Shown here: in pieces, positions 47,779 through 64,000 of the stretch | How the letters are laid out: every line of letters begins with the position of its first letter | Position numbering within the stretch: position 1 is the stretch's first letter | Notes under the pieces: generated by a model | Told to the model about the DNA's origin: nothing | The model's input: only the letters and a program-made list of their open reading frames with translations | Databases searched by the model: none | NCBI RefSeq assembly: GCF_014854695.1 | Contig: NZ_CP027558.1 | Coordinates: 248,001 to 312,000 of the forward strand | Reading direction: 5' to 3' | From: Rhodococcus rhodochrous | Lineage (GTDB): Bacteria; Actinomycetota; Actinomycetes; Mycobacteriales; Mycobacteriaceae | DNA: 64,000 nt | Position numbers and translations under genes: made by a program

Positions 47779-48463
47779 GTCCGTACCTCCGTTGCTTGTG
47801 TTTGGCAGGACAGTACGAGGTGAAAAGGCGCGTGAATTGACGTGGAATGACACGGGTCCTGGCATTCTGCGCCACCCGTGTAGGGGAGTTCATCGAGCGG
47901 TTCGGCCGGGGGGTCCGAGGCGGCTCTTCGCCGTTTCGATTCGTCGAAGGACTGGCCGGGCACGTTGAAGGATGTTGAAGCGGTGGTGGTCGGTGTCCTT
48001 CTGCGGAACGGCGGATAGGTCGAGGTCTACGTCGGCTGTGCGTCCCCGTTTCTGGTTCGATCGTCGAGTAGCGGGGGGATCGATGGGTTTGTGGTAGTCG
48101 TTCGGCAGGAATGTGTCCACGCCGCAATTGCGTGCTCTCTGTGAGAGTAAGGGCGTGATTGCACTCCGCGAAGTCGGTGGTAGCATGCTGTTGATGCACC
48201 ACATTACTTGTTGGACAGCGACTTCCGAGACGGTCAGGTCATGTGGTCGACTGTAGGCGATGTAGGTGCTTTGCAAAAGTAATAATTCGATTCGGGGTGG
48301 AAGTTCGGGTTCCGCTGCTCCCGCGTGTCTGAGGGTGTGGATGAGCCTTCGGCGCTGGGGTTCTCGGCCAACGGGATCTCGGTATCTAGCGGTGCGGCCT
48401 TGGGTGCACCCGTGAATTCTGATCGTGGCAATGCGTCCCTGCCGACGGTTCGAGGTGATCTCT
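47779..48463. other. nitA upstream region with no convincing gene
   Basis: About 690 bp that should contain the nitA promoter at its left end. A 200-codon minus-strand frame has no motif or ribosome site and was not called. Confidence 0.4.
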
Positions 48464-48481
48464 GGTTTACCGCGGTAAACC
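48464..48481. repeat. Perfect 18-bp palindrome upstream of parAB
   Basis: GGTTTACCGCGGTAAACC is fully self-complementary, 570 bp before parA. It is a good candidate for a regulator-, partition- or replication-protein site. A GTCAC-A-GTGAC palindrome (48554-48564) and two copies of GTAGCGCGAT (48507, 48586) are close by. Confidence 0.5.
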
Positions 48482-48853
48482 GCAGTGGGGTTCATGGCGG
48501 TCCTCAGTAGCGCGATGGGTTGCCAAGTCGTGTGACTTGGTCACCGGTTCGCTGTCACAGTGACGAAAGTGATGCGCGGTTCAAGGTAGCGCGATCAGCG
48601 CTCGACCGTCAGGGCTTGCCCGCATCATCTCGTCAATCTGCATTCTTGAACCCCGGCACGCCACCGATCGGGCCGAGTTCGGCGCGGTATAGGGAACCCG
48701 TAAGTTTGCGGAGCCGTGTGGGACCGTTTCCGCATCGACAGTGTCAGGGAGATAGCAGGATTGAGATAGTTACCATGTATTCACTTGGTGCAGAATGTCT
48801 TTGAAGAGAAGGTGTTCGGTGGCGCTGGAGGTGGCGTCGACTCGGTCGGCGCT

Positions 48854-48928
48854 CTCACGTGAGGGTGAGAACGCAAGGCATCTGAGATGATTCGGCGAAA
48901 GCTTGTTCGGTAGACCTGTAAGGGTCTA
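48854..48928. promoter_or_regulatory. Palindromes before parA, candidate parS sites
   Basis: CTCACGTGAG (48854-48863) is a perfect palindrome, with a further TGAGA nearby. TAGACC-TGTAAG-GGTCTA (48911-48928) is a second dyad. Both lie within 200 bp before parA, where plasmid centromeres and ParA/ParB operators usually are. Confidence 0.4.
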
Positions 48929-49051
48929 TCGTACGTGTTGCGCGTCTCGCGGAGATTACCGTGGTGCAGGCGCAATCATCATCTCCGTCAAGAGATGACG
49001 ACGCGAGTCCGAAGTAGCCCCACCCTGGGGTGAAGCATACGGAGGTAACCT

Positions 49052-49771
49052 GTGGCTGTTCATGTCATGCTCAACCAAAAAGGTGGTGTCGGAAAATCGA
49101 CGCTCACTATGAACCTTGCCGCTGTCAAAGCGGATGTCCTCACCGCCGTGACCGCCGGCGCCGATGACGATGTTCAGTCCCCGGTCGCCGCGATCTCGGT
49201 CGACCCGCAGGGCTCCGCAGTCTGGTGGGCTTCGCGGGTCGAGGAGTTGCCGTTTCTGATCGATCAGGTCCACGACAACCTCGACGTGCTCCGTAATCTC
49301 GACAAGTTGCCCGGCATCAAGCACGTTTATGTCGACACCCCGGGCTGGATCGACCTGTCCGGTGCCGACGACGGCACCGATGTGCTCGGCACCGGCAGTT
49401 CCGCCGACGCCCTGCGCGCCGTGCTCGAGGTCGCTGATCTGGTCATCGTTCCGATCGAACCCGAACCGCTGTGTTTCGATCCCACCGCGCGCACCATCAA
49501 GCAGGTCATCGAACCTCTCGGCAAGAAATTCATTGTTGTGGTGAACAATTGGGATCCCCGCGACGGCAAGGTCGACCTCGAGCAGACGCGCGAGTTCGTC
49601 CAGGCCAACGGCTGGCCGCTGGCGCGAACGGTGGTGCGGCACTACAAGGTCCACACCCGCGCCGCCGCCGAAGGCCGTGTCGTTACCGAGTACGAAGCCA
49701 ACCGCGTCTCGTTGCAGGCACGGGAGGATTTCTACAAGCTCAGCCTCGAGCTCGCGGATGGTGGTCGCTGA
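49052..49771 (+). CDS. parA: ParA-family plasmid partition ATPase
   Basis: A 239-residue ParA with the deviant Walker A motif KGGVGKST at residues 10-17 (N-terminal sequence LNQKGGVGKSTLTMNLA), the Walker A' region DPQGSAVWWAS, and the Walker B-type segment YVDTPGWIDLSG. It lacks the N-terminal helix-turn-helix of large ParA proteins, so it is a small type Ib-like member. It starts at a GTG with GGAGG 6 bp upstream. The stop overlaps the parB start (TGATG). It segregates the plasmid with ParB. Confidence 0.92.
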   Translation: MAVHVMLNQKGGVGKSTLTMNLAAVKADVLTAVTAGADDDVQSPVAAISVDPQGSAVWWASRVEELPFLIDQVHDNLDVLRNLDKLPGIKHVYVDTPGWIDLSGADDGTDVLGTGSSADALRAVLEVADLVIVPIEPEPLCFDPTARTIKQVIEPLGKKFIVVVNNWDPRDGKVDLEQTREFVQANGWPLARTVVRHYKVHTRAAAEGRVVTEYEANRVSLQAREDFYKLSLELADGGR

Positions 49772-50685
49772 TGCCGCCCAAGGGTGGGCGCGCGAACTTC
49801 GCCTCCCTCGTCGGAGCAGTCGGCGACAATTCTCCGGTCGACCGCAAGCGCACCCCCGCACCCACGAAGACGAAGACGACGATCGAGCCGCTCGAAGGTC
49901 AACTGCTCGCCGATGTTCCGGTCGATCAGCTCATCGCCAACCCGCGCAACCCGCGTGACGAGCTCGGGGATCTGTCGGATCTGGCGACCATTACCGACCG
50001 GCAGCTGCAACCGGGCACCGTGGTCAGCCGCACGGCGTGGTTGAAACTGTGGCCCGAGGATGAAGACGATCTCGGTGCAGCGCAGTACATCGTCGTCAAC
50101 GGCAACCGCCGGCTCGCTGCGGCCCAGAAGTACGGCCGCCCCGGCCTCGATGTGGTGCTGCGCGACAGCATCGCCGTCGACAAGGGCGAAATCCTGTGGG
50201 CGGCAACGAGTGAGAACATCGACCGCCGCGATTTCGACGTCCTCGAAGAAGCCAAGGCCGTGGAGTTGATGGTCTCCGAGTTCGGTAGTGCGGATGCGGC
50301 GGCGAAGAAGCTCGGCCGCTCCAAAGGCTGGGTGTCCCAGCGTCGTGCTCTGCTCAAACTCGCCCCCGAGTTGCAAGCAGCCCTGCGGGCAGGTGATCTC
50401 GCTGTGCGGCAAGCCCGTTCGCTGGCGCGGGTTCCGCTCGAGGACCAGGTCGCGGCGTGGGAAGCAGCCCAGAACCCTGAGCCGGCACCTGAAGCCGACG
50501 CAGAGACTGCCGAGCCTGAGGCGCCGCAGCCGAAAGAACCTGCGAGCAAGCTCGAGCCGGTGGACAAGGTGGCTCAGGCGCTCAAGCGTCTGGGGGCGGA
50601 TCCGGATGTGCTGGCCGCGGCGGTGCGGAAGCACTTCACCGATGACGAGCGTCGCAAGCTCATCGATGCACTCGAGCTCCGGTAA
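49771..50685 (+). CDS. parB: ParB-like partition DNA-binding protein
   Basis: A 304-residue ParB. The N-terminal ParB/Srx domain is at about residues 50-140 (VPVDQLIANPRNPR, then IVVNGNRRLAAAQKYG). The central helix-turn-helix is EEAKAVELMVSEFGSADAAAKKLGRSKGWVSQRR. An acidic, proline-rich linker (PAPEADAETAEPEAPQPKEP) leads to a helical C-terminal dimer domain. It binds parS and is coupled to parA. The pair shows that the window is plasmid or plasmid-derived. Confidence 0.92.
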   Translation: MPPKGGRANFASLVGAVGDNSPVDRKRTPAPTKTKTTIEPLEGQLLADVPVDQLIANPRNPRDELGDLSDLATITDRQLQPGTVVSRTAWLKLWPEDEDDLGAAQYIVVNGNRRLAAAQKYGRPGLDVVLRDSIAVDKGEILWAATSENIDRRDFDVLEEAKAVELMVSEFGSADAAAKKLGRSKGWVSQRRALLKLAPELQAALRAGDLAVRQARSLARVPLEDQVAAWEAAQNPEPAPEADAETAEPEAPQPKEPASKLEPVDKVAQALKRLGADPDVLAAAVRKHFTDDERRKLIDALELR

Positions 50686-50813
50686 CGGCGATCCAAAGCC
50701 GATAGCGTTGCTTCACAGTGGTTTCCACTGCTCAGCCTTGCGTAGTGATGTACTTGGAATATGGGCCCGGCTTGGGAAGAGTGACTAGTGGGCCTGTAGT
50801 AGTGCATTGCTTG

Positions 50814-50835
50814 ATAACCGCGGCGGTGCGGTTAT
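50814..50835. terminator. Small hairpin between parB and the convergent mhp operon
   Basis: ATAACCGC and GCGGTTAT arms with a 6-base loop, in the 210-bp interval between converging genes. A second hairpin (CAGTGG-TTT-CCACTG) is at 50716-50730. Confidence 0.5.
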
Positions 50836-50895
50836 GGTCGCGCTCAGTTGGACTTGTCGAAGACGACAGACCTTTTCTGGGGGTGCAGCTGCCGG

Positions 50896-51852
50896 TCACT
50901 TCATGTGGTTCGAGGATCGGGTGAAGGCTGTCGTGATTCCGAATCCTGCTATCCACTCAGGTATTTCGCGGTAGAAGCTTGAGGTGACCTGGTAGGGGCC
51001 GTTTGCGTGGAGCGCGGCGTAGGCGGCGATCCAGGTGCGCACCTCATGGGACGAGTGGCCGGCCTGCTCGACGAACCAGTCATTGGTCCACGTGTCTATT
51101 TGTTCAAGTTCGCCGGATGCCAGAATTTCGAGAAGATGCTGGTCCCAGTGGGGGTTCAACGGCTGAATGGTGGCGGTACCGGCAGCGAAATCTCGCCCGG
51201 CGGCGATGACGCGTCGTTCGCGGACTTCGCGTTCGGCGTCGCTCGGATTGCGGCCGTCGATCAACCGTTCGCGCACCTGCTCAGGCGAGGTGGTGAACTG
51301 CGGAATCGGTGGGTCGTGGGAGAGTCCTCCGGATCCGACGAACAGGACGCGTCTGCCCAGTTTGTTGGCTGCTCGTCCGACAGCTTCGCCGAGCAGCCGA
51401 ACTCGGCTGATGGGGCCGAGGGGTTCGGCGACGGAGTTGATGAAGATCGGCACAGTCGGTACTGCGGTGATCGATCCGACGAGTAGTTGTAGTGCCTGGG
51501 CGAAACCGTGGTCGACGTGCATGCGTTCGGAGAACGCCGCGTCGATGCCGCTGTCGAGTACTTCGCGCGTAATAGTGTGAGCGGCGTCGCGGTCGACGTC
51601 GAGGGGGCCAGCTTCGGTGCCGTAGTCGCCGACGGACTGCGCAGCGGCTCCGATGCAGAACGGTGGCAACAGGTCGTAGAAGACCCCGTTGTAGTGGTCG
51701 GGGGCGAAGATGACGATCAGATCTGGGGCGAAATCGGCGATGAACCGGCGCGCGTGGTCGAAGGCGGCGTCGACGGCGTCGATGACTTCTTGATCGGGGT
51801 CGTTGCGTCCCATCAGGGGGGAGTGCGACATCGCGCACAGCGCCACAGGCAT
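50896..51852 (-). CDS. mhpB: Class III extradiol dioxygenase (2,3-dihydroxyphenylpropionate 1,2-dioxygenase type)
   Basis: A 318-residue LigB-fold extradiol dioxygenase that cleaves a catechol next to its hydroxyls with Fe(II). It matches MhpB throughout: CAMSHSPLMGRNDP at the N-terminus (iron histidine), IVIFAPDHYNGVFYDLLPPFC, MHVDHGFAQ, RVLFVGSGGLSHDPP and the C-terminal IPEWIAGFG. The start at 51852 follows AAGGAG. It is last in the transporter-hydroxylase-hydrolase-dioxygenase operon. A 2,3-dihydroxyphenylpropanoate-like substrate is inferred from the MhpB match. Confidence 0.92.
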   Translation of the reverse strand: MPVALCAMSHSPLMGRNDPDQEVIDAVDAAFDHARRFIADFAPDLIVIFAPDHYNGVFYDLLPPFCIGAAAQSVGDYGTEAGPLDVDRDAAHTITREVLDSGIDAAFSERMHVDHGFAQALQLLVGSITAVPTVPIFINSVAEPLGPISRVRLLGEAVGRAANKLGRRVLFVGSGGLSHDPPIPQFTTSPEQVRERLIDGRNPSDAEREVRERRVIAAGRDFAAGTATIQPLNPHWDQHLLEILASGELEQIDTWTNDWFVEQAGHSSHEVRTWIAAYAALHANGPYQVTSSFYREIPEWIAGFGITTAFTRSSNHMK

Positions 51853-51986
51853 CGCGGAGTCTCCTTGCTGGTACTTCACGGCCTCTGCCCGGATGGTTCG
51901 AGCGAGAGCGGATGAGGTTCGTCGGATGGGTGGGTCCTGCCGGTGCCGCCAGGGGGTTCAGGGGAGGGCGGCACCGACTGCATCTG

Positions 51987-52856
51987 TCAACTGCGATCGA
52001 GGAGAAAATCCAGGTGCAGTTTGTTGAAGGTGTCGGGGTCTTCGTACTGGGGCCAGTGTCCGCAGTTCTCCATGACCGCTAGCTTGGCGCCGGGGATGTG
52101 GGAGGCGATGCGCTCTGCTTCGTCGACCGGACCGGAGGGATCTTTGGTGGTCCACAGAACCATCGTTGGCACGGTGATGCCGTGGAGGGTGGCATCGGTG
52201 ATCATGTTCCGTTTGCGGGTTTCGAGGTCCTGCAAGGCCATGTTCATTTCGCATGCCTTGAGCCAGTCCGGTTGTTGGAAGATGGCCTGGCGGGTGCGGA
52301 TGAGGTCGTCGGTGACCATGTTCGGGTCGGCCATGAGCCATTCGAGGCGTGCTTTGACGCGTTCCCAGCTCGGGTCTTTGGCGGCTTCCATCGACAGGGT
52401 GTAGAGCCGTTCCATTACCTGTGGGTTGGCCATGGTGCCGCCCATGGTGTTGAGCACGATCCTCTCGACTTTGTCCGGGTGGTCGTGAGCGAACTGGGCG
52501 GTGACCCATCCGCCCAGTGACTCGCCTGAGAAGGATGCCTTCTCGACGCCGATGGCATCCATGAGGTGCAGCACGTGGTCGATGTAGTGCTTGATCTCGA
52601 GCGGGTGATCGGGTTTGGCGGAGTAGCCATGGCCGATGAAGTCGATGGCCCAGACATTGAAATGCTCGGAGTGTGAACGCAGATTGCGGACATATGCTTC
52701 GGCGTGGCCGGTGATGCCGTGTAGGAAAATGAGTGTGGGCTTGGAGTCGTCCCCGGCGTGCAGATAGCGGGTGCGGTATGGGCCGGCCTGGATGAACCCC
52801 TGGCTGAACTCGACCTGGTTCAGATCGTCCCAGACGCTGGTGTACGGGCGGGTCAT
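51987..52856 (-). CDS. mhpC: Meta-cleavage product C-C hydrolase (MhpC-like)
   Basis: A 289-residue alpha/beta hydrolase expected to split the ring-opened meta-cleavage product into a 2-hydroxydienoate and a short acid. It shows LIFLHGITGHAEAY, DFIGHGYSAKPDHP, the nucleophile elbow FSGESLGGWVTAQF, the acid near TTKDPSGPVDEA and the histidine in ENCGHWPQYEDP. Its start overlaps the hydroxylase stop (ATGA) and it precedes the extradiol dioxygenase. Assignment rests on motif and operon. The acyl specificity may differ from E. coli MhpC. Confidence 0.87.
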   Translation of the reverse strand: MTRPYTSVWDDLNQVEFSQGFIQAGPYRTRYLHAGDDSKPTLIFLHGITGHAEAYVRNLRSHSEHFNVWAIDFIGHGYSAKPDHPLEIKHYIDHVLHLMDAIGVEKASFSGESLGGWVTAQFAHDHPDKVERIVLNTMGGTMANPQVMERLYTLSMEAAKDPSWERVKARLEWLMADPNMVTDDLIRTRQAIFQQPDWLKACEMNMALQDLETRKRNMITDATLHGITVPTMVLWTTKDPSGPVDEAERIASHIPGAKLAVMENCGHWPQYEDPDTFNKLHLDFLLDRS

Positions 52857-54748
52857 GCGTGTGCTCCCTCGATTGGTGTGATGCTGGCTGTGGAGGCTGG
52901 TGTTGCGTCGTCGGCGGTGACGTGCGGGACGACGATCGGTACGGCGTGGGTGCTGTACTGGGGCGTACCGCCGTTCCTGGCGCTTGGGGTCTCGTGCGGG
53001 GCGCGGTCGAGGACGATGGTGAGCGCGTTCTCGAGGTGGGTGAGTGCTTCGCTGTCGTCCCATACCGGAGCGCTGTACCGCCAGGCGACGTAGCCGTCGG
53101 GGCGCACGAGAAGAGCCCCGGCCTCATGGATTTCACGGATCTGCCGCCAGTACCCGTACGAGTCGTTGATGCCCGCTTCACCGATGACTATGGTGCGCAA
53201 GAACGGTAGGTCCAATGTGGCAGCGGCACGTTTCCATGCCTGGCCGCCGATGCCGGTGAGCAGGGTCATCTGTCCCTTGCCGGTGACGTCGAGGGTCGAG
53301 ACCCGGGTACCGTCCGGGCCGACCAACCAGGCGTGTGGCAGCTTGGCGCCAGGACGAGTGGTGGCCTGCAGGTACAGTTCCCGGTCGCGTCCCCATACCT
53401 CCTCACCGGCTTCAAGGTCGGGGACCACCGCAGACGAGGCGTAACGCTGGTTGAGTTCGACGCCGTGGGCATTGAACTCGGTGTTCTTGACCTCGAGTGC
53501 CTCGTACAGGCGCTCGCGCAGGGCCGCGCCTTCGGGGGAGGGGGCTTTGAGCGTGATCAGGCCGGCGGTGACCGGGTCGTCGCTGGTGGGATCGAACCAC
53601 TCGCGCAGACCGGCGTAGTCCTTGCGGGACTGGTTGGCGCGCGCGACGATCTGCCTGCCGACCGGGACCCGCTCGGGGGAGTAGGACTCGAGCAGTCCCG
53701 GTCCCGCGTATCCCTTGACGGCGTAGGCGATCTTCCAGGCAAGGTTGAATGCGTCCTGCATGGAGGTGTTCGAGCCCAGGCCGCTGCTCGGCGGATGCCG
53801 ATGTACGGCGTCGCCGCCACAGAACACCCGGCCGGATTGATAATGCTCGGCCCACTGCTGATTGACGTACCAGAACGAGCGCGACACGATGTCGATGGTC
53901 AGCTCAGGGTCGCCGACAAGGGTACGGATCTGTTCGAGCACAACGTCATCGGATATGTCGGGTTCGCCCTGGGACATGTCGAAGCCCCATCCGGCGATCC
54001 ACTGGCCCCAAGGTCTGATCGCCCGCAGCAGACCCATGCCGATCTCACCGAAACCGGCCTTGGAGTTGAAGATCCAATGCAGAATGCTTGGCCGGTGAGC
54101 GACGTACTTGCTCAGATCCGCGTTGAACAGGATGTAGGCGGTGCCGGCACGGGCGAGCTCGCCTTCGAAGGGCAGTCCGATCTGTTCGGCGATCTTCGAG
54201 CGGGCACCGTCGAAGCCGAGCAGGAAGCGCGCTCGCTGGGTGAACTCGGTGCCCGAGCGCACATCCCGGAATCTCACCGTGACACCGTCCTCGTCCTGGC
54301 TGTGATCGAGGTATTCGGTGTTGAAACTGATCAACGCACCGCGTTCGGCCGCGTTCTTGATCAGTACCGGTTCCATCAGGGGCTGAGGGATGTCGAGCAT
54401 CGCGCACGGGCTGCCGGCGAGATAGTCGCCGTACCGGGCGCCGGTGCCCCATGTTTGCATCCGGACGATTTCTTCACCGGCCAGACTGGTGGTGAACAGG
54501 GTGTCGCCCATCTGGTCCCACGGGGTGGCGTATGTGCGGGCTTCGTCTTCGACGCCCAGGTCGCGGAGTACTTCGACGGCGCGTTGGTTGGTGATGTGCG
54601 CGCGGGGTGAGTTTGCGACCCAGGGGAACATCGAGACGGCGTGGACGCGTACACCGTAGGTGGCCAGGGCGAGAGCGGCTGTGCCGCCGGCGGGACCGAG
54701 TCCGACGATGATGACATCGGTGTCGTACGTGGAGTCGTGGTCGTTCAT
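52853..54748 (-). CDS. FAD-dependent aromatic hydroxylase (MhpA/TfdB type)
   Basis: A 631-residue flavoprotein hydroxylase. The FAD motif is VIIVGLGPAGGTAALAL, the DG motif lies in LGFDGARSKIAEQ, and GDAVHRHPPSSGLGSNTSMQDAF is the ribityl-binding region, closest to phenol hydroxylases of the TfdB group. The C-terminal third is a thioredoxin-like domain. It is longer than E. coli MhpA (about 554). In this operon it should convert a (hydroxyphenyl)alkanoate or related phenol to the catechol used by the MhpB-like enzyme. The ATG at 54748 begins the conserved domain; the frame continues upstream without support. Confidence 0.9.
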   Translation of the reverse strand: MNDHDSTYDTDVIIVGLGPAGGTAALALATYGVRVHAVSMFPWVANSPRAHITNQRAVEVLRDLGVEDEARTYATPWDQMGDTLFTTSLAGEEIVRMQTWGTGARYGDYLAGSPCAMLDIPQPLMEPVLIKNAAERGALISFNTEYLDHSQDEDGVTVRFRDVRSGTEFTQRARFLLGFDGARSKIAEQIGLPFEGELARAGTAYILFNADLSKYVAHRPSILHWIFNSKAGFGEIGMGLLRAIRPWGQWIAGWGFDMSQGEPDISDDVVLEQIRTLVGDPELTIDIVSRSFWYVNQQWAEHYQSGRVFCGGDAVHRHPPSSGLGSNTSMQDAFNLAWKIAYAVKGYAGPGLLESYSPERVPVGRQIVARANQSRKDYAGLREWFDPTSDDPVTAGLITLKAPSPEGAALRERLYEALEVKNTEFNAHGVELNQRYASSAVVPDLEAGEEVWGRDRELYLQATTRPGAKLPHAWLVGPDGTRVSTLDVTGKGQMTLLTGIGGQAWKRAAATLDLPFLRTIVIGEAGINDSYGYWRQIREIHEAGALLVRPDGYVAWRYSAPVWDDSEALTHLENALTIVLDRAPHETPSARNGGTPQYSTHAVPIVVPHVTADDATPASTASITPIEGAHA

Positions 54749-54758
54749 GGTGGTCACT

Positions 54759-56165
54759 TCACTTGTCCAAGGTCCGCAGGGACTGTGCGGCGTCGATGGT
54801 GGGCGGAGCCGAAAAGGATGCGGTGGCAGTTGCATTCGGTGTCGAGGTGCGCTGGTCGGCAACCAGTTGGCGTGTCGCGCCCTTGCGTCCCCAGCCGCCG
54901 GGCAGCAGGATCACCGAGACCACCGAGATGGCCGAGACGATCAGTAGGTAGAGCACGATCGAGTTGCTGGTGTTGGTGGAGGCGTACAGGGCGGTCGCAA
55001 TGGTCGGGGCGAACGCCGAGCCCGCGACCTGGGAGATCGTGTAGCCGATCGAGACGCCGCTGTAGCGCACATCCGCATCGAAGATCATGGTGAACAGCGA
55101 TCCGGTTACTCCGGCGGCGGGGGCCATGGAGATGCCGAAGACCAGTACCTGCGCGGTCATGAAAAGCCAGGGGTTTCCGGTGTCGATCAGTGCGAAGGCC
55201 GGGCCGATCGCCACCCCCATGGTGACGGCGCCGAGCAGGTACATGGTCTTGCGGCCGAAGGTGTCCGACAGGGCGCCGAAGACGGGATAGAGGAGGACGG
55301 CGACGAGGCCGGCGACGAACACGCCGGCCAGGGCGAAGGTGCGGCTGATTCCGGCGACGGTGGTGCCGTAGGAGACGAGATACGCCATGCAGATGTAGGC
55401 GAACACTCCCTGGGACAGGTAGGTGCCGGCAATGAGGAAGATTTCTTTCCAGTGCTTGCGGAATGCGACGGCGATCGGCATCCGCACTACAGCACTGTTG
55501 GCTTTGATCTCGGCGAAGTCGGGGCTTTCGGTCAGGGACAGGCGGATGAACAGGCCGATTACGATCAGGACCGCGCTGAACAGGAACGGTAGCCGCCAGC
55601 CCCAACTGAGGAACTGCTCGTCCGGGAGTTGAGAAGCGGCGAAGAACGCCAGGGTCGCAATGCTCGTCCCGGCGGGAGCACCCATCTGTGAGAAGGAGCC
55701 GAAGAATCCTTTCTTCGCGGTGGGGGCATGCTCGACGGCCATCAAGGTGGCGCCACCCCATTCACCGCCTACGGCGAAGCCTTGAACCAGGCGCAGCAAG
55801 GTGAGCAGGATCGGAGCGGCGATGCCGATCTGGGCGTAACCGGGTAGCAGTCCCATCAGTACTGTGGCGGCACCCATACCGACGAGAGAGATGACGAGCA
55901 TCTGTTTGCGGCCGACCCGGTCACCGAAGTGGCCGAAGACGATGCCTCCGAGGGGTCGGGCGAGGAATCCGACGCCGAAAGTAGCGAAGGACAACAGGAT
56001 TCCGATAGCAGGTGAAGCATCGGGGAAGAACAAGGTGGGGAAGACCAGTGCGGCCGCGGTGCCGTAGATGAAGAAGTCGTAGTACTCGACGGTGGTCCCT
56101 ACGAAGCTGGCCAGGGCCACCCGCATCGGGGAGGTCTTCGTTGCGGAAGTCGGCGCGGTGGTCAC
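54759..56165 (-). CDS. MFS transporter of the metabolite:H+ symporter (MHS) family
   Basis: A 468-residue membrane protein with about 12 helices and the MHS/KgtP features SFVGTTVEYYDFFIYGTAAAL in helix 1, FGHFGDRVGRKQMLV after helix 2, and LRLVQGFAVGGEWGGA. It probably imports the aromatic acid used by the operon, in the place of hppK or mhpT in related clusters. The GTG at 56165 with GGGGGAA upstream was chosen over an earlier frame opening. It is the first gene of the operon, with a GntR-type operator 140-160 bp upstream. Confidence 0.87.
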   Translation of the reverse strand: MTTAPTSATKTSPMRVALASFVGTTVEYYDFFIYGTAAALVFPTLFFPDASPAIGILLSFATFGVGFLARPLGGIVFGHFGDRVGRKQMLVISLVGMGAATVLMGLLPGYAQIGIAAPILLTLLRLVQGFAVGGEWGGATLMAVEHAPTAKKGFFGSFSQMGAPAGTSIATLAFFAASQLPDEQFLSWGWRLPFLFSAVLIVIGLFIRLSLTESPDFAEIKANSAVVRMPIAVAFRKHWKEIFLIAGTYLSQGVFAYICMAYLVSYGTTVAGISRTFALAGVFVAGLVAVLLYPVFGALSDTFGRKTMYLLGAVTMGVAIGPAFALIDTGNPWLFMTAQVLVFGISMAPAAGVTGSLFTMIFDADVRYSGVSIGYTISQVAGSAFAPTIATALYASTNTSNSIVLYLLIVSAISVVSVILLPGGWGRKGATRQLVADQRTSTPNATATASFSAPPTIDAAQSLRTLDK

Positions 56166-56303
56166 GGTGTGGTTCCCCCGCTGCGAGGGGCGGGGCAGGC
56201 TGGCACTGCGAACAATGCTGGGTGCGAGGCGGTCATGGCCGCGCCTTTCGTCTGAGATTCGTCGGGATGTCGAAGAGGGCCGCCGCAGAAAGGGGCCGAG
56301 CAA

Positions 56304-56323
56304 CTGGAATGCTAGACGTCTAG
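56304..56323. promoter_or_regulatory. Candidate GntR operator before the transporter operon
   Basis: CTGGAATGCTAG (56304-56315) is identical to a half of the near-perfect palindrome at 57337-57356, up to one variable base. It overlaps a perfect CTAGACGTCTAG palindrome (56312-56323). Confidence 0.6.
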
Positions 56324-56402
56324 TTTCGAAGCTACTCCAGCGCGAATGGTGACGCAAGTCTCTGTCGGAGGAGGCTGGATCGCTCTGTGGCGATCAATGT
56401 GA

Positions 56403-56432
56403 TGCGGCGCTGCCTGAAGATACAGCGCCGCA
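56403..56432 (-). terminator. Hairpin terminator of the GntR gene
   Basis: Perfect 10-bp arms (TGCGGCGCTG with CAGCGCCGCA) and a 10-base loop, 65 bp after the GntR stop and before the transporter promoter. Confidence 0.65.
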
Positions 56433-56496
56433 GGCGGGGCGGAAGCCTGTAGGCCTGTCTGGTCGCACAGAACCCGTTACAGGGAGCGGCTCACCA

Positions 56497-57237
56497 TCAG
56501 CGCGATGGCTGAGCACTCGATTCGTCGCGAATGACCGCGATCGTGCCGACGATATGGCGCTCCATCGCCTCACGCGCCGCAGCGGCATCGCGATTTCGGA
56601 TCGCCTCGGCGATCTCGTGATGGTCGTGCTGGCGGTCGGGTAACGCACTCGCGAGCGGGTTGGTGATGCCGGCGGTGTTGATCAGGAAATCCGACAGATC
56701 CCACATCCGCTGACTGGTCTCCTCCATGATCCGTGAATGCGCCATCGCATGGATGGCGGCATGGAATTCCCTGTTGTGAACTCGGTATCCGTGGGCGCGG
56801 ACCTCGGGATCGTCGGAGGCGATCAAGGCATCGACGCGTGCAGAGATCAGATCCAGTTCCCGCACCTGCGCCTCGGTTCGCCGCGTGGCCGCCACCGCAG
56901 CAATGGCTCCTTCGAAACCACCGAACAGGGTGAAGAAGTCCTCGACCTCACGCGGGGTGTAGGAAACGACCTCGCATCCGACCTGAGGGACGATGTAGAC
57001 CAGTTTGTCGCTCGAGAGGCGACGCAGGGCATCCATGACCGGCTGTTTGCTCACCCCGAATTCCTGCCGAATCGACTCGACGACGATCTTCTCGCCAGCT
57101 GTATAGCGGCCTTCGAGCAATCGGGTCTTCAAGATGTCGTAGAGCGCGGAGGACAGGCGTGCCCCGGAGGTGCGGACGTGCGCAAGGAGGGCGGCAGCCT
57201 CGGTGCTAGCCGTAGGGCCGGGATCGGTCGAGGTCAT
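56497..57237 (-). CDS. GntR-family (FadR/FCD) transcriptional regulator
   Basis: A 246-residue GntR repressor with an N-terminal winged helix (SSALYDILKTRLLEGRYTAGEKIVVESIRQEFGVSKQPV) and a C-terminal FCD helical domain (VHNREFHAAIHAMAHS; HEIAEAIRNRDAAAAREAMERHI) with metal-type histidines. It lies between the meta-cleavage operon and the divergent oxidoreductase/hydrolase operon. The CTGGAA-type palindromes before both suggest that it controls both, and probably itself, as a ligand-relieved repressor. Confidence 0.9.
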   Translation of the reverse strand: MTSTDPGPTASTEAAALLAHVRTSGARLSSALYDILKTRLLEGRYTAGEKIVVESIRQEFGVSKQPVMDALRRLSSDKLVYIVPQVGCEVVSYTPREVEDFFTLFGGFEGAIAAVAATRRTEAQVRELDLISARVDALIASDDPEVRAHGYRVHNREFHAAIHAMAHSRIMEETSQRMWDLSDFLINTAGITNPLASALPDRQHDHHEIAEAIRNRDAAAAREAMERHIVGTIAVIRDESSAQPSR

Positions 57238-57336
57238 CGGCTCAGGCTTTCCGTCGGTTATCGGTGGTGCTGGGAGTTGAAGGCAGCGACTTGCATTCTA
57301 GTACTTGTGGTGTGAGTCACTGTGGGCTACCTTCAT

Positions 57337-57356
57337 CTGGAACGCTAGCATTCCAG
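57337..57356. promoter_or_regulatory. Candidate GntR operator, CTGGAACGCTAGCATTCCAG
   Basis: A 20-bp palindrome with one mismatched pair, in the divergent interval between the GntR gene and the luciferase-like gene. Its left half recurs at 56304. Confidence 0.65.
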
Positions 57357-57501
57357 TTCGCGATCGGTAGGCAGCATCCCCAATCGCGGAATTCACTCCG
57401 GAGGCATGCACACCCGCAGTGAGGCCGTCGGACACATCCCCGCTACGACGGGTAGGACGAGCCAAGTGCACACCACCGGGCCCCGTGCAAGGAGAAAACT
57501 T

Positions 57502-58575
57502 ATGGAATTCTGTATCGGCACCTGCGCCAAAATCGACCAGGTCGCGATGGTGAAGCAGGCCGAGGACCTCGGGGTCACTCACTTCGGTGTCGGCGAAGGC
57601 CCGTTGCTGTTCTCCGATCCGTACCAGTTCCTCGCACTGGCTTCGCAGCAGACCACCGGCATCCACCTGGGCACCATGGTCACCAACCCATTGACCCGCA
57701 TCGCCCCGGTCACCGCGAACTCCATGGCCACTCTCAATGCCTTGGCGCCAGGCCGAACCTTCCTCGGTATCGGTACCGCCAACAACGCGCTGCGTTCCAT
57801 GGGCAACCGCACCGCGAAGATCTCCGAACTGTCCCACGCCATCGAGGTCTCCCGTGAACTGATGGCAGGCCGCCGGGTCAACCACACCTGGCTCGGACAG
57901 TCCCGGGACGTGGAGTTTCTCGACAAGGAAAGTGGCTTCTACAACGTCACCGACCACATCCCGATCTGGGTTGCTGCCGGCGGGCCCCGCGGTCTTGCCG
58001 AAGCAGCCAAATACGCCGACGCCGTCGTCTACTGCCTCGGACCGAACATCGACATGATCCAGATGATTCGTAGGCTCCTGGACAAAGCCGTCGCCGATGC
58101 CGGACGAGCCCCAGGCTCTGTCAAGCTCGTCTCGTTGTCCTGGTTCTACCAACTCGGCAACGGAGAAACCTGGGAAGACGGCGTCACCAACGGCTTCGGA
58201 TCCGGACCGATCAGCTCATGCATCACCAACGCCGGACTGATGGACCAACACCGCGACGAACTCGGCGACTCGATCGTCGACGCCTCACTCACCGCCGCCC
58301 AGCAATACCTCGGCGACCCGAAATCCGCGGACCAACCGCACTACCTCGACGTCTGGGCGAAGTACCTGCGCGGCCTCGACCCCCGGCACCGTCCGATCAT
58401 CACCAAGGAACTCGTCGACTACTGGTGCCTGTATGGCTCTCCTGCCGAGCTACGAGAAAAAACAGCCCTGATGCGCGAGGCCGGCGTCGACATCCTTCAA
58501 GTCTTCCTGTCCAACCCACGCACAGCCGCCCGCGACATCGACAACATCGGGCATTCGATCCTCGCCCACGCCTGA
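57502..58575 (+). CDS. Luciferase-like (LLM class) flavin-dependent oxidoreductase
   Basis: A 357-residue TIM-barrel flavoprotein of the bacterial luciferase superfamily, with FCIGTCAKIDQ at the first strand, IHLGTMVTNPLTR, GRTFLGIGTANNALR (flavin loop) and IPIWVAAGGPRGLAEAAKYAD. These enzymes are FMNH2-dependent monooxygenases or F420-dependent dehydrogenases; sequence alone does not decide. No flavin reductase gene is adjacent. The ATG follows AAGGAG. It is divergent from the GntR gene and paired with an isochorismatase-fold hydrolase, so an oxidation-then-hydrolysis step before the meta-cleavage route is plausible. Confidence 0.87.
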   Translation: MEFCIGTCAKIDQVAMVKQAEDLGVTHFGVGEGPLLFSDPYQFLALASQQTTGIHLGTMVTNPLTRIAPVTANSMATLNALAPGRTFLGIGTANNALRSMGNRTAKISELSHAIEVSRELMAGRRVNHTWLGQSRDVEFLDKESGFYNVTDHIPIWVAAGGPRGLAEAAKYADAVVYCLGPNIDMIQMIRRLLDKAVADAGRAPGSVKLVSLSWFYQLGNGETWEDGVTNGFGSGPISSCITNAGLMDQHRDELGDSIVDASLTAAQQYLGDPKSADQPHYLDVWAKYLRGLDPRHRPIITKELVDYWCLYGSPAELREKTALMREAGVDILQVFLSNPRTAARDIDNIGHSILAHA

Positions 58576-58604
58576 TCCTTCCCCGTTCTGCCCAGGAGAT
58601 ACTG

Positions 58605-59225
58605 ATGGAACTCGACCCGCGTACCACTGCGCTCGTGGCTGTCCACTGTCAAGGCGACGTCGTCGAACCTACCGGCGCCTTCGCCGACTTCTTCTACCAG
58701 CAGGTGACCGAGCGCAAGGTCATCGACCGCATAGCCACGCTCATCACCGCCGCCCGTACCGCCCACACCACGATCGTCTACACCCGGGTCGCATGGAAGC
58801 CGGACTTGTCCGATCTCGACGCCAACTCGCCCCTACTCGGCATCGTCGCCCAATCCGGTTGCCTCAAGGAAGGCAGCGAACTCGCCGAGATCATCGAACC
58901 CCTCACGCCGCATGATGAGGACATCGTGCTCACTCACCAGCGCATCGGAGCCTTCGCCCGTACCGACCTCGACACCATCTTACGCAGCAAAGGCATCACC
59001 ACCCTCCTCTTCGCCGGTGTGGCCACAAACGCCTCCGTCGAGGGAACAGCCAGGGTCGCAGGCGATCTCGGATACCGAGTGGTGATCGTCGAGGATGCAT
59101 GCTCTGCGACCAATCTCGCAGCGCATCAAGCCAGCATCGACTCCCTCGCGCTACTGGCCGAGATCAGCACAGTTGACGAAGTCCGCGCTGCTTTGGCTAC
59201 GACGATCACCGGCACCCCGGTCTGA
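58605..59225 (+). CDS. Isochorismatase-fold hydrolase with non-canonical catalytic residues
   Basis: A 206-residue isochorismatase-superfamily protein. The usual Asp-Lys-Cys triad is not seen: the first strand reads ALVAVHCQGD where family members normally have a catalytic Asp, THQRIGAF replaces the Lys-containing segment, and GVATNASVEGTAR has Ser where the nucleophile Cys (TNxCVExTA) is expected. It may act without a cysteine nucleophile, as true isochorismatases do, or have a changed mechanism. AGGAG precedes the ATG, 29 bp after the luciferase-like gene, so the two form an operon. Confidence 0.85.
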   Translation: MELDPRTTALVAVHCQGDVVEPTGAFADFFYQQVTERKVIDRIATLITAARTAHTTIVYTRVAWKPDLSDLDANSPLLGIVAQSGCLKEGSELAEIIEPLTPHDEDIVLTHQRIGAFARTDLDTILRSKGITTLLFAGVATNASVEGTARVAGDLGYRVVIVEDACSATNLAAHQASIDSLALLAEISTVDEVRAALATTITGTPV

Positions 59226-59340
59226 CCGCCGACACCCAGTTCTCGGGCACAGCGCGTCGATGCCTATCCGCCCTCACATTGCTGATCTCAGACCAAAAAA
59301 CCGTCTACATCAGCAGTTCGTATGTGAAGGCCACCATTTG

Positions 59341-60720
59341 GGGTCTGTCAGGTAATCGGTGGATCCGGTTCTGGCGCATCGGTTTAGTTCTCACTCGGGG
59401 TGATCCGACCCTCGAACGTGATAGCGAACGCGTTCAACGCCGGCTTCCACCTCATCGCCCATCGTGCTCTTCCCTTCCCGGTCGGGTCCAGCGCCCGGGT
59501 CGCCAAATACAGACACTTCAACGCGGCTTGCTCGTTGGGGAAATGTCCGCGGGCCCGGGTCGCCCGGCGGTACCGCGCGTTGATGCTCTCGATCGCGTTG
59601 GTGCTGCAGATGACGCGTCTGATCTCGGGGTCGTAATCGAGGAACGGCACGAATTCGCTCCAGGCGCTGCGCCACAGCCGGATGATCGCCGGGTAGCGCG
59701 GGCCCCATTTGACGGCGAACTCGTCGAACCGCTCGCCGGCCGCGGCCTCGTTGGCTGCGGTATAGATCGGCCGCAGATCCCGGCTCATCTCATCCCAGTA
59801 CCTACGTGACGCATAGCGGAAGGTGTTGCGCAGCAAATGGATCACACACGTCTGGACGATCGCGCGGTCCCACACCGTGGTGATGGCCTCGGGTAGGCCC
59901 TTGAGTCCGTCACACACCACGATGCACACGTCACCGGTCCCGCGATTCTTGATCTCGGTCAGGACGGCGAGCCAGAACTTTGCACCCTCGCCGCCGTCAC
60001 CGGCCCACAACCCCAGGATGTCGCGATGCCCGTCTACGGTCACGCCGATCGCGACGTAGACGGGCCGATTGGTGACCTGCCCGTCGCGAATTTTGACGTG
60101 GATCGCGTCGATGAACAGCACCGGATATACCGGATCGAGCGGCCGGACGGACCACTCCGTCATTTCGGCGAGCACCTTGTCGGTGATCTTGCTGATCGTC
60201 TCCTTCGACACCGTGGCGCCGTAGACGTCGTCGAAGTGGGCGGCGATCTCACCGGTGGTCAGACCCTTCGCCGACAGCGACAAGATGATCTCGTCGACCC
60301 CGGTCAGGCGTCGCTGACGTTTCTTGACGATCTGCGGATCGAACGAGGCATCGGTGTCTCGCGGAACCTGGATCTGCACCGGGCCGATCTCGGTCAGGAC
60401 GGTCTTGGTGCGCCGACCGTTGCGGGAATTCCCACTGTTACGTCCTTCTACCTGGTTTTTCTCGTAGCCGAGGTGCTCGTCCATCTCCGCTTCGAGGGCG
60501 GTTTCGAGCACGGTGGCGGTGAGTTGGTTGAGCAGTCCGTTCGGGCCGACCAGCTCGACGCCGTCGGCTTTGGACTGGGCGAGCAGTTGCTGCGCCAGCT
60601 GTTGGGGATCGATCTTCTGCTGATCCATGGGATCGAGTGTTTCGGTCATGATGGTGCCTTCTCGCCAAGCAAGCTCGGCGTGTCGGCCAAAACCAGATCA
60701 ACCGTTATCCCGACAGTCCC
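59341..60720. mobile_element. Complete IS256-family insertion sequence, 1380 bp
   Basis: The ends are imperfect inverted repeats (GGGTCTGTCAGG at the left and GGGACTGTCGGG read inward from the right; about 26 of 34 positions match). The element is flanked by a perfect 8-bp target duplication, ACCATTTG, at 59333-59340 and 60721-60728. One intact transposase gene fills it. The intact ends and duplication suggest a recent insertion. Confidence 0.93.
59384..60649 (-). CDS. IS256-family (Mutator-like) transposase
   Basis: A 421-residue DDE transposase of the IS256/Mutator family: an N-terminal DNA-binding part (ALEAEMDEHLGYEKN), then VPRDTDASFDPQIVKKRQRR, SLSAKGLTTGEIAAHF, the first catalytic Asp in PVLFIDAIHVKIRDG, the second in VVCDGLKGLPEAI followed by CVIHLLRNT, and the glutamate in STNAIESINARYR. 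All catalytic positions are present and there is no frameshift, so it is probably active. Confidence 0.95.
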   Translation of the reverse strand: MTETLDPMDQQKIDPQQLAQQLLAQSKADGVELVGPNGLLNQLTATVLETALEAEMDEHLGYEKNQVEGRNSGNSRNGRRTKTVLTEIGPVQIQVPRDTDASFDPQIVKKRQRRLTGVDEIILSLSAKGLTTGEIAAHFDDVYGATVSKETISKITDKVLAEMTEWSVRPLDPVYPVLFIDAIHVKIRDGQVTNRPVYVAIGVTVDGHRDILGLWAGDGGEGAKFWLAVLTEIKNRGTGDVCIVVCDGLKGLPEAITTVWDRAIVQTCVIHLLRNTFRYASRRYWDEMSRDLRPIYTAANEAAAGERFDEFAVKWGPRYPAIIRLWRSAWSEFVPFLDYDPEIRRVICSTNAIESINARYRRATRARGHFPNEQAALKCLYLATRALDPTGKGRARWAMRWKPALNAFAITFEGRITPSEN

Positions 60721-60842
60721 ACCATTTGCGACGCCCGCCTCGCCCGGCACATGCCCGAAGGAACTTCGACGGTATGTGCTTGTGCGGTCCCGGTGAGCGG
60801 CTCCGTGGGGTGTTCTGTGAGGTATGCACTCGCGCCAAATAG

Positions 60843-61151
60843 AGCTGACACCGCGATACCGTCGGGCTGGCAGGAGTGCGCCGATCACTTTCCGTGCCGC
60901 CGGCACATCACCGGAAAGCATCGACGTTCTCCTCGGCCATTGCGCGAAGGTCTTGGCAGCTGCACGCGAAACGGCGGCAGCAGGCGTCTGCACCGTCGCG
61001 GTCGCTGGTCGGAGATGCCGATAGCCCTACACGGAGATCGGTCGCCCGTTGAGCAGTGTCCGTCGTAGGGCGCCATGTGCAATGCCGTTGGTCTCAAGAT
61101 CCCAGCTGTGGCATCTGCATGCGGTCCGGCGCGTTGGCCTGTCGGTGTTGT
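60843..61151. other. Intergenic region with no convincing gene
   Basis: About 310 bp between the IS256 junction fragment and the 3' end of the GAF-ANTAR gene. Short open frames show no motif. Confidence 0.45.
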
Positions 61152-61634
61152 CTATGGATTGTCGGGGTCGAGTGTGAGGTGGTGGGTGATGATGTCGTGG
61201 GCGATGAGGGTGATCCTGCGGTGTTGGGTGTATGCCATTGCTTGTAATCGGGCGAGGGCGTCGCCGGCGGAGATCTGGAGTTGGACAGCGAGCATTCCTG
61301 CGGCGATATGGACGTTGCCGCGGGGGAACAGTGCGGGGTCCAGCATCGGAGAGGAGGTACGGGTGGGGTCGAGTTCATCGACGAGGGTGAGGCCGAGGGT
61401 GGCGGCGTAATCGGTGGCGATGCGGTAGTGCGGGGTCTCGAGGGGGCCGGGTCTGGTTCGGTAGAGCTCGAGGACGCCGATATTGGCGGCCTTGTCTACC
61501 GTGAGGGGGAAGGCGAAGAGGTCGCGGACGCCGAGGTCGAGTACTTCGGAGGTGAACATCGGCCAGCGGGTGGCGGTGGGGTCTGCGAGGTCGGGGTGTA
61601 TCTCGGGGACGGATGTGCGGTATGCGGTCAGACA
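61152..61634 (-). pseudogene. GAF-ANTAR regulator, 3' part, disrupted by an IS110-family element
   Basis: The 161 codons encode the C-terminal part of a GAF domain (CLTAYRTSVPEIHPDLADP, then FAFPLTVDKAANIGVLELYR) and an ANTAR domain (HIAAGMLAVQLQISAGDALARLQAMAY) that would bind RNA hairpins and cause antitermination. The first part of the GAF domain is at 63128-63244. Removing the IS110-family element joins them in frame as LREGP-CLTAYR. A start codon inside the remaining part could give a truncated ANTAR protein. Confidence 0.85.
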
Positions 61635-61681
61635 TCCCTGGATCTCGGATGTCAAGCAGCGATGATGGGTTGACGATGTGA

Positions 61682-62872
61682 CTAGGCGGTCGCCTGGTCA
61701 TAGTGCGTGTGGGTCTTGAGGCAGCCGTGAAGGATGCCGACGAGCCGATTGCCGACCTGCCGCAGAGCGGCGTTGTGGCTGACGTTGCGGGCGCGGAGTT
61801 GGTCGTAGTAGACACGCACCTGCTCATCGTGCAGGATCGCGCAGGAAGCCTGCATGTGCAGGGCATCGACAAGCCGATCGTTGTGTACGTGCCTGGCGGA
61901 GACCACTCGCGTTTTGCCGGACTGCCTGGTGATCGGACTGGTCCCGGCGTAATTCTTGCGTGCCTTTGCGCTGGCGTATCGGCCCGGGGCGTCCCCGAAC
62001 TCGGCAAGCACCCGGGCACCGAGAACGACGCCGAGACCGGGCTGGCTGAGCAGGATCCCAGCGTCCGGGTGCTCACCAAAATGCGTCGACACGTCTTTCT
62101 CGAGGTTCGCGATCTCGGTGTTCAACGTCGTCAGAATCGCAACGAGCGACCGCACCGTTGCCGCATATGCCGCGCTCACCGGACCGGGTTGACCGAGGTG
62201 CTCGGCGCGCAGCGCCTGCTGGAGTGCCGCCGCTTTGGTCTCGATGTCACGGCGGCCCTTCAACGCGGCGGTGATCTGCCGCAAGGTGAGCGCGGCGGCC
62301 GCGTCCGGGGCAGGAGCCTTGGTCAGCAGGGCCAACACCGTGGTGGAGGTAAGTCCGAGCGGTGTGTAGGCCTCGAGCGCGGCGGGGAAGTAGTCCCGCA
62401 ACGCCACCCGCAGCCGCAGCAGGTGGCGGGTACGTTCCCAGATCAACGTCTGATGCGCGCGGGCGACGACCTTGACTGCCTCCGCGACCTCGGAGTCCGC
62501 GGCAACCTCACGAAGTTGATGCCGGCGGGTGCGGAGCATGTCGGCGAGGGCGTGCGCGTCTCCCTTGTCGCTCTTGGCTCCGGAGTTTCCGAGGATTTCC
62601 CGATGTCGCGCAGCCTGTTTCGGATCGACACTGAACACGGTGTAGCCGGCTGCCAGCAGTGCTTGTACCCAGGGTCCGCGGTCGGTTTCGATGCACACCA
62701 GCACGTCGGCACACTCGGTGTCGTCGTCGGCGAACCGTCCGGCGAGTTCCCCGAATCCGCGGATCCCCGCTATCCCTTCCGGCAATCGTTCGCGTCGCAG
62801 GACTCGGCCGTGTTCGTCCTGGACTTCCACGTCGTGGTGGTCTTCGGCCCAGTCGTCTCCGATGTACAACAA
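61682..62872 (-). CDS. IS110-family DEDD recombinase (transposase)
   Basis: A 396-residue IS110 recombinase. The N-terminal RuvC-like DEDD domain has YIGDDWAEDHHDVEV and VLVCIETDRGPWVQALL, with later acidic residues in AKSDKGDAHALADML. The C-terminal Tnp20 domain has ILLSQPGLGVVLGARVLAEFGD and the conserved serine region NYAGTSPITRQSGK. I placed the start at a TTG with AGGAGG 6 bp upstream (62872). The longer frame upstream has no support. It appears intact. Confidence 0.92.
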   Translation of the reverse strand: MLYIGDDWAEDHHDVEVQDEHGRVLRRERLPEGIAGIRGFGELAGRFADDDTECADVLVCIETDRGPWVQALLAAGYTVFSVDPKQAARHREILGNSGAKSDKGDAHALADMLRTRRHQLREVAADSEVAEAVKVVARAHQTLIWERTRHLLRLRVALRDYFPAALEAYTPLGLTSTTVLALLTKAPAPDAAAALTLRQITAALKGRRDIETKAAALQQALRAEHLGQPGPVSAAYAATVRSLVAILTTLNTEIANLEKDVSTHFGEHPDAGILLSQPGLGVVLGARVLAEFGDAPGRYASAKARKNYAGTSPITRQSGKTRVVSARHVHNDRLVDALHMQASCAILHDEQVRVYYDQLRARNVSHNAALRQVGNRLVGILHGCLKTHTHYDQATA

Positions 62873-63127
62873 CCTGCACCTCCTGGATCGTCGAGCGTCC
62901 GGCGGCAGCCTGCAGGAAGTTCGTTCGCGGACTAATGGTCGAGTGCTCACGGCCTCGGCCGGGCACGACATCCCACCAGCGATGCAGACCTCCTGGCACG
63001 CTGGTGGAGGCCCGGTCTGACCTCAGGACTCGGCCAATCGGTCCAGTCGGGGAGAGTGCTCATCCACCAGCGGCTACCAGGTGCCAAGTCTGCCTGACCG
63101 GCCAGCCTTGGTGCCTCCCATTAGTCA
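62873..63127 (-). ncRNA. Candidate IS110 bridge RNA region
   Basis: The element's 255-bp end upstream of the recombinase codes for no convincing protein. In the IS110 group the bridge RNA that guides target and donor recognition is transcribed from this position. I infer the RNA from family knowledge and location and did not fold it. Confidence 0.45.
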
Positions 63128-63244
63128 GGGGCCTTCACGCAGGGTGAATTGGAGTTCGTCGACCTGCTCAGCGATGGTATCGGTGGCGTAGACCAGGTCT
63201 CGGGTGGCGAATCGTGCATGTAGCCGGCCGCACTCGTTCCTGCA
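63128..63244 (-). pseudogene. GAF-ANTAR regulator, 5' fragment
   Basis: About 39 codons (LHARFATRDLVYATD, then EQVDELQFTLREGP) match the first part of an actinobacterial GAF-ANTAR protein and end exactly at the IS110 junction, where a TGA of the element stops the frame. The true N-terminus may be up to about 20 codons further upstream. Confidence 0.75.
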
Positions 63245-63407
63245 GGGGCAAGGAGTGGGAGCGCCGGGTGTGGCCCGGCAAGAGCGGGTCATCGGGTCAC
63301 GGCTCGGGTCGGTCGCGAGATAGAGGGTTGCATGCGAGCGGGTGATTTCACGGGTGAATTGCCTACTCGTCGGTAACAAATGGGCCGCAGAGATCGGTGT
63401 CCGGTAT

Positions 63408-63596
63408 GTGAACTGGGGTTTCTGGCTGATTGTCGCGTGGCTTGCCGTATCGGTGACCTTCGCTGCTGTCTTCGGTCGTGTCATCCGCGCCCGCGACCAA
63501 CGTGAGATACCGCCACTTGACCAGGACAACGACGGCGAACGGTCGCGACGCACGCCAGCCGAGGCATGTAAGTGCAAGCGGAGGATGCCGTTATAA
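63408..63596 (+). CDS. Small single-span membrane protein
   Basis: A 62-residue protein from a GTG (VNWGFWLIVAWLAVSVTFAAVFGRVIRARDQREIP). It has one hydrophobic helix, then a basic stop-transfer region and a charged, Cys-containing tail. I have a general memory of similar short proteins in actinobacteria but cannot name a family. The ribosome site is weak, and a start 66 bp upstream is possible. It is divergent from the broken GAF-ANTAR gene. Confidence 0.5.
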   Translation: MNWGFWLIVAWLAVSVTFAAVFGRVIRARDQREIPPLDQDNDGERSRRTPAEACKCKRRMPL

Positions 63597-63909
63597 GGTG
63601 CCCCACCTCGGGCGCCGCCCACCGAAATCGCCGACCAGCGTTATGCCCATCTCGACGATCCCCATGTTCTGGCAACCGAGGACCATACCGCGCGCCGAGG
63701 CTGTGTGGCCGTCAGGCATGAGGAGATTCGATCCGCACGTAGCTAACAAGCACCAGGTCCGCCCTGGCGCACGCAGTGTCGTCTCCCTGCTGATGAACCC
63801 GCAGGTGCAGTGGCGAACCTGTCGACGGCGTTCGCCTCTACGACCACACCCAGTATCTCCCCCTGGGGGTGGCTACACGTAGTCTGCCGGGACGCTCGTC
63901 GGCGGTCGC
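63597..63909. other. Intergenic region with no convincing gene
   Basis: About 310 bp with no motif-bearing frame, between the small membrane protein and a gene end entering from the right edge. Confidence 0.4.
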
Positions 63910-64000
63910 TCACAAGGTCATCCAGACATCGACTAGTTCACCCAGGTCGAGACCGGTGTCCATGGTGGGGTGGATGTGGAGTTCGGTACCGCGCAGTGCT
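63910..64000 (-). CDS. C-terminal end of a gene running off the right edge
   Basis: The minus strand is open from the edge for about 30 codons (ALRGTELHIHPTMDTGLDLGE, ending in VWMTL) to a TGA at 63910-63912. Too little is visible to assign a family. Confidence 0.4.
   Translation of the reverse strand, partial: ALRGTELHIHPTMDTGLDLGELVDVWMTL

What the first reader, a model, noticed from the sequence alone, without database searches (positions are those of the whole stretch)
61152..63244. IS110-family element splitting a GAF-ANTAR gene, with a TG core and a likely bridge RNA end
Excision rejoins LREGP and CLTAYR exactly in frame, giving precise element ends. TG occurs at both junctions, and a 255-bp non-coding end precedes the recombinase, where IS110 elements encode the bridge RNA. 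The pre-insertion target can be read directly, so guide and target loops could be predicted.
Basis: partly seen in the sequence, partly recalled or inferred. Interest (0 to 1): 0.62.

Follow-up and report, generated by a model that had tools for sequence, protein, structure and literature searches.

The report
IS110 jumping element with bridge RNA
This is an intact bacterial jumping element that carries its own RNA guide for choosing where to insert; it is a new example of a recently discovered, well-described kind, and it landed in a gene that was already broken.

Summary
The feature is real: a 1,493-bp IS110-group element (minus strand, 63124-61632, plus a second core copy at 61631-61630) inside a GAF-ANTAR gene remnant. 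Its recombinase is intact (396 aa, all five catalytic residues) and its left end encodes a predicted bridge RNA.

The core is CT, not TG. A real empty site exists on Rhodococcus rhodochrous plasmid pNit (flanks 99.9% and 99.7% identical) and reads GGCCCCTGA-CT-GACCGC, so the gene already carried a TGA stop, and a 5' deletion, before insertion. Excision would restore LREGP*LTAYR, not LREGPCLTAYR.

The bridge-RNA guess is right and now strongly supported. In 44 relatives the right target guide matches its own target's first four bases in 98% of cases, against 42% when targets are swapped; the four left-target bases next to the core match in 81% against 39%. Eleven held-out elements behave alike. 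Donor guides match the element ends, and TTGACA-N17-TCTAAT forms across the predicted circle junction.

It works like IS621 and meets the tested features of the IS110 group. Differences: a longer right guide and possibly a helix enclosing both loops. Expression and activity are untested. New member of a known kind; modest interest.

The parts
61630..63124 (-). IS110-group element with a CT core copy at each end (63124-63123 and 61631-61630); 1,493 bp counting one core
   Evidence: shared ends in 88 loci; empty site on pNit L137
61682..62872 (-). DEDD recombinase, 396 aa, TTG start 62872-62870, preceded by GGAGG; D7, E62, D102, D105 and S318 align with IS621 D11/E60/D102/D105/S241
   Evidence: Pfam; phmmer to IS621 8wt6 E=6e-11 and ISCro4 9t56; residue positions; active site from PMC11208158
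62904..63112 (-). predicted bridge RNA, approximate limits (from about 7 nt after the junction -10 box to the end of the enclosing helix)
   Evidence: consensus structure of 43-47 relatives; transcription itself not tested
63056..63072 (-). target-binding loop, 5' arm of outer stem (CGCUGGUGGAUGAGCAC)
   Evidence: pairs with 63013-62999; outer stem 95% of cells paired, 8 of 10 pairs with changes on both sides
63045..63054 (-). left target guide CUCCCCGA plus core CU
   Evidence: matches target GCCCCTGA-CT at -6,-5,-4,-2,-1 and core; mismatch at -3
63017..63024 (-). right target guide GAGGUCAG, pairs with target CTGACC (core and +1 to +4; mismatch at +5)
62999..63013 (-). target-binding loop, 3' arm of outer stem
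62967..62975 (-). left donor guide UGGGAUGUC, same sequence as the element's own right end GGGATGTC(T)
   Evidence: covaries with donor-end A/G change in relatives
62932..62938 (-). right donor guide CCAUUAG, reverse complement of element start CTAATGG
   Evidence: covaries with element start GG/GA/CA/AA across relatives
62913..62995 (-). donor-binding loop, outer stem CAGGAGGU (62995-62988) with ACUUCCUG (62920-62913)
   Evidence: 95% paired, 7 of 8 pairs with changes on both sides
61650..61655 (-). TTGACA -35 box in the right end; in the circle it lies 17 bp before TCTAAT, which spans the core
   Evidence: exact TTGACA at this spacing in 36 of 46 distinct relatives
61152..61629 (-). 3' part of a GAF-ANTAR gene remnant, right flank of the insertion
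   Evidence: 99.7% identical to pNit over 639 bp
63125..63210 (-). residual 5' part of the GAF-ANTAR remnant; about 500 bp upstream, including the gene start, deleted between CCACCC repeats (same deletion on pNit); end coordinate approximate
   Evidence: comparison with PD04 L138

Best explanation
An intact IS110-group insertion sequence that moves by bridge-RNA-guided recombination at a CT dinucleotide. Shown by sequence comparison: the CT core, the two target guides and two donor guides in the left-end RNA, conserved paired stems around them, an intact DEDD/serine recombinase, and insertion into a site that pNit still holds empty. Inferred by analogy with IS621: the element excises as a circle; closing the circle joins TTGACA and TCTAAT into a promoter that transcribes the bridge RNA; the RNA holds circle and target together while the recombinase exchanges strands at CT. 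Here the target was GGCCCCTGA-CT-GACCGC in an already dead GAF-ANTAR gene.
For: Empty site with CT overlap. End consensus in 88 loci, 52 distinct left ends. Guide-target match own versus swapped: RT +1..+4 98% v 42%, LT -4..-1 81% v 39%, 0 of 20,000 shuffles reach it; holds inside each of two subclades and in 11 held-out elements, 93% v 36% and 80% v 49%. Close relatives L086, L087 and L115 (82-88% DNA identity) changed guide and target together: GACC, GACG, CAAC. Donor guides covary with element ends. Helix conservation with two-sided changes. Recombinase similarity to solved IS621 and ISCro4.
Against: Folding of the window sequence alone is not more stable than shuffles (z = -0.74), so structure rests on the comparison. 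The own guide has a mismatch at -3 and at +5. Shuffle tests do not remove relatedness, although the multi-copy and close-relative results do not depend on that. No expression or transposition data; only one copy in the genome.
Confidence: 0.95

Rival explanations
1. One reading: core TG, ends at TG|ACTAATGG and GGGA|TG|TCTGACC, inserted into an intact GAF-ANTAR frame (LREGPCLTAYR).
For: TG does occur at both junctions and the rejoined frame is open; the intact codon TGT is present in the homologue on PD04.
Against: The nearest empty site has TGA, as a CT core predicts and a TG core does not. In relatives the left junctions have no TG in common before CTAAT, while CT is shared at both ends. TGTCT at the right end is part of the shared element end in the copies.
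Confidence: 0.02
2. The left-end RNA is a dead relic and the element was placed by another means, for example a related active element in the same genome (L002/L003) acting in trans.
For: Single copy; two copies of a relative with 57% protein identity and a different guide (GACTTC) are present.
Against: The target fits this element's own guide at 11 of 12 positions from -6 to +4 including the core, and fits the relative's guide less well; recombinase and ends are intact.
Confidence: 0.04
3. The conserved left end is a 5' UTR or regulatory region, and its agreement with targets reflects shared descent of insertion sites.
For: Shuffles do not model phylogeny.
Against: Copies of one element lie in unrelated sequence and agree mainly in the guide-matched bases (Planomonospora, Tsukamurella, Kibdelosporangium); close relatives changed guide and target together.
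Confidence: 0.02

Closest known systems
IS621 (E. coli, IS110 group; Durrant 2024 PMC11208160, Hiraizumi 2024 PMC11208158; PDB 8wt6)
   Same: CT core; bridge RNA in the left end with target loop before donor loop; left guides copy the top strand, right guides are its reverse complement; promoter across the circle junction; DEDD plus serine active site
   Different: Low protein identity and a longer recombinase (396 v 326 aa); right target guide matches four to five bases beyond the core against two in IS621; right donor guide pairs without interruption; a possible extra helix (GGUAGCC/GGCUGCC) encloses both loops
ISCro4 (PDB 9t56)
   Same: Related recombinase by sequence (E=7e-9)
   Different: Shorter recombinase (341-residue chain); its RNA was not compared here
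IS1111 group (Siddiquee 2024 PMC11187229)
   Same: DEDD recombinase, RNA-guided target choice
   Different: IS1111 has the RNA downstream of the gene and longer subterminal inverted repeats; here the RNA is upstream
IS2112 and other actinobacterial IS110 elements (from memory; ISfinder not available)
   Same: Same family and similar hosts
   Different: Sequence not compared here

Membership tests
[quoted passage not shown]
   both above curated cut-offs
IS110 group of the IS110 family | DEDD and serine catalytic residues | tested here: met
   D7, E62, D102, D105, S318 by alignment with IS621
IS110 group of the IS110 family | Long non-coding end upstream of the recombinase (left end longer than right) | tested here: met
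   about 250 bp upstream, about 50 bp downstream
IS110 group of the IS110 family | Short core at both ends, no other duplication | tested here: met
   CT overlap against real empty site
IS110 group of the IS110 family | Bridge RNA with target and donor loops whose guides match target and donor | tested here: met
   covariation and structure; sequence evidence only
IS110 group of the IS110 family | Promoter formed across the circle junction | tested here: met
   TTGACA-N17-TCTAAT, conserved; activity not tested
IS110 group of the IS110 family | Circular intermediate and RNA-programmed transposition | not testable with these tools
   needs experiment
IS1111 group | RNA-bearing end downstream of the gene | tested here: not met
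   the guides lie upstream of the gene

The most novel reading that the evidence does not exclude
This actinobacterial clade uses a distinct bridge-RNA design: a right target guide of core plus four to five bases, and a helix GGUAGCC/GGCUGCC that ties target and donor loops into one closed unit, unlike IS621, where the RNA ends at the donor loop.
Probability: 0.3. Interest if true: 0.45.

Novelty: new member of a known kind. Interest (0 to 1): 0.3.

Why it matters
It gives a complete, checkable bridge-RNA system for actinobacteria: ends, core, four guides, promoter and a true before/after pair. The clade shows natural reprogramming between close relatives, and its longer right guide would be of use to those who seek more specific bridge recombinases. 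The mechanism itself is already known.

Tried and rejected
TG core: rejected by the empty site and relatives. Reading the window's TGA as a mutation after insertion: rejected because pNit carries the same TGA without the element. Single-sequence folding as evidence: not informative, z -0.74. Pairing of the element start CTAATGG with CCATTAG in the consensus fold: set aside as RNA structure, because it is the donor-guide match and the element start probably lies before the transcript. Rfam Ms_AS-4 match inside the recombinase gene: also found in four of five relatives searched, so it follows the coding sequence and is no evidence for the bridge RNA. The 5' hairpin was not well aligned across relatives (65% paired), so no claim is made on it. 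Four of the 50 representative left ends failed the automatic guide rule and were left out of the statistics, and 11 of the later loci had no recognisable full ends.

Full report
What is there. On the minus strand of the window, 63124 to 61630, lies an IS110-group insertion sequence. The recombinase (TTG start at 62872, stop at 61682, 396 aa) matches PF01548 and PF02371 and, by sequence, the solved IS621 and ISCro4 recombinases. The residues that align with the IS621 active site are all present: D7, E62, D102, D105, S318 (active site from PMC11208158). The genome holds one copy, and two copies of a relative with 57% protein identity.

Ends and core. Multi-copy relatives in other actinobacteria share CTAATGGGA-like left ends and GGGATGTCT right ends, and differ outside. 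The same two ends could be placed in 88 loci with 52 distinct left ends. The common dinucleotide is CT. A direct test exists: Rhodococcus rhodochrous ATCC BAA870 plasmid pNit (NZ_CP032676) has the same gene without the element, with flanks 99.9% identical over 874 bp and 99.7% over 639 bp. Its sequence is GAAGGCCCCTGACTGACCGCATACCG. The left junction of the window follows it through ...CCCCTGACT, the right junction from CTGACCGC on, so the overlap is exactly CT.

The target gene. In Rhodococcus sp. PD04 the homologous gene is intact: 232 aa, REGPCLTAYR, codon TGT. pNit and the window share two older lesions: about 500 bp deleted between CCACCC repeats, which removes the gene start, and TGT to TGA. 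The element therefore entered a gene that was already dead. The same TGA mutation turns -1 of the target from T to A, the base that the element's guide carries; whether that made the site usable is an inference from one case.

The bridge RNA. Aligning the left ends shows a variable stretch after GAGCAC and another before AGAYCGTGCC. The first reads like the DNA left of the core, the second like the reverse complement of the DNA right of it. Over 44 elements with complete flanks, guide and own target agree at +1 to +4 in 98% of cells against 42% after swapping, and at -4 to -1 in 81% against 39%; none of 20,000 shuffles reaches the observed values, and this holds within each of two subclades. 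With the rule fixed, 11 new elements gave 93% against 36% and 80% against 49%. Shuffles do not remove relatedness. Two results do not depend on it: copies of one element in unrelated places agree mainly at the guided bases, and the close relatives in the window, in genome G004 and on pRhX5 changed guide and target together, GACC, GACG and CAAC. In the window the guides are CUCCCCGA-CU (63054-63045) and GAGGUCAG (63024-63017); from -6 to +4 they fit the target at 11 of 12 positions, the mismatch being at -3.

Donor guides. UGGGAUGUC (62975-62967) copies the element's right end and CCAUUAG (62938-62932) is the reverse complement of its left end. Where relatives changed an end (GGGGTG; CTAATCAG; CTAATAAG; CTAATGAG), the guide changed with it.

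Structure and promoter. The outer stems of the target and donor loops are paired in 95% of cells, with two-sided changes at 8 of 10 and 7 of 8 pairs; slid controls stay at 60% or less. A further helix, GGUAGCC with GGCUGCC, encloses both loops: 94% paired but with few two-sided changes, so it is suggestive only. IS621 RNA ends at its donor loop (PMC11208158). Joining the ends gives TTGACA-N17-TCTAAT; TTGACA stands at exactly this spacing in 36 of 46 distinct relatives. IS110 elements are known to form such a promoter on excision (PMC11208160).

How it works, and what is new. The anatomy is that of IS621, and every IS110-group feature that could be tested is met. It differs in the longer right target guide, which Durrant and colleagues note for some relatives, and perhaps in the enclosing helix. 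Expression, circle formation and transposition were not tested. The finding is an ordinary but unusually well documented new member of a known kind.

Noticed in passing
window 61964-62045 (+): Rfam Ms_AS-4 (actinobacterial sRNA) matches antisense to the recombinase gene; four of five relatives searched show the same match inside theirs, so the family may simply follow IS110 coding sequence.
   Followed up: partly
window about 63210 (minus strand, upstream of the gene remnant): A deletion of about 500 bp between CCACCC repeats, shared with plasmid pNit, removed the GAF-ANTAR gene start before the insertion.
   Followed up: yes
G000:C1:4540097 and G000:C2:88452 (L002, L003): A second IS110 element of the same clade, two identical copies in different places, with its own guide (GACTTC) and targets (GAGTTC, GAGTTA).
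   Followed up: partly
L177 (Mycobacterium riyadhense plasmid) 1-600: A group II intron reverse-transcriptase gene ends just before the IS110 gene, about where the bridge RNA should be; the expected full ends were not found.
   Followed up: no
window 48000-64000: The region is about 98% identical to large Rhodococcus plasmids (pNit, PD04 unnamed1) over 82% of its length, so the window probably lies on a large plasmid.
   Followed up: partly
L115 and L116 (R. erythropolis pRhX5, R. qingshengii plasmid): The IS110 relative there (82% DNA identity over the full length) has no gene listed under it in either record.
   Followed up: no
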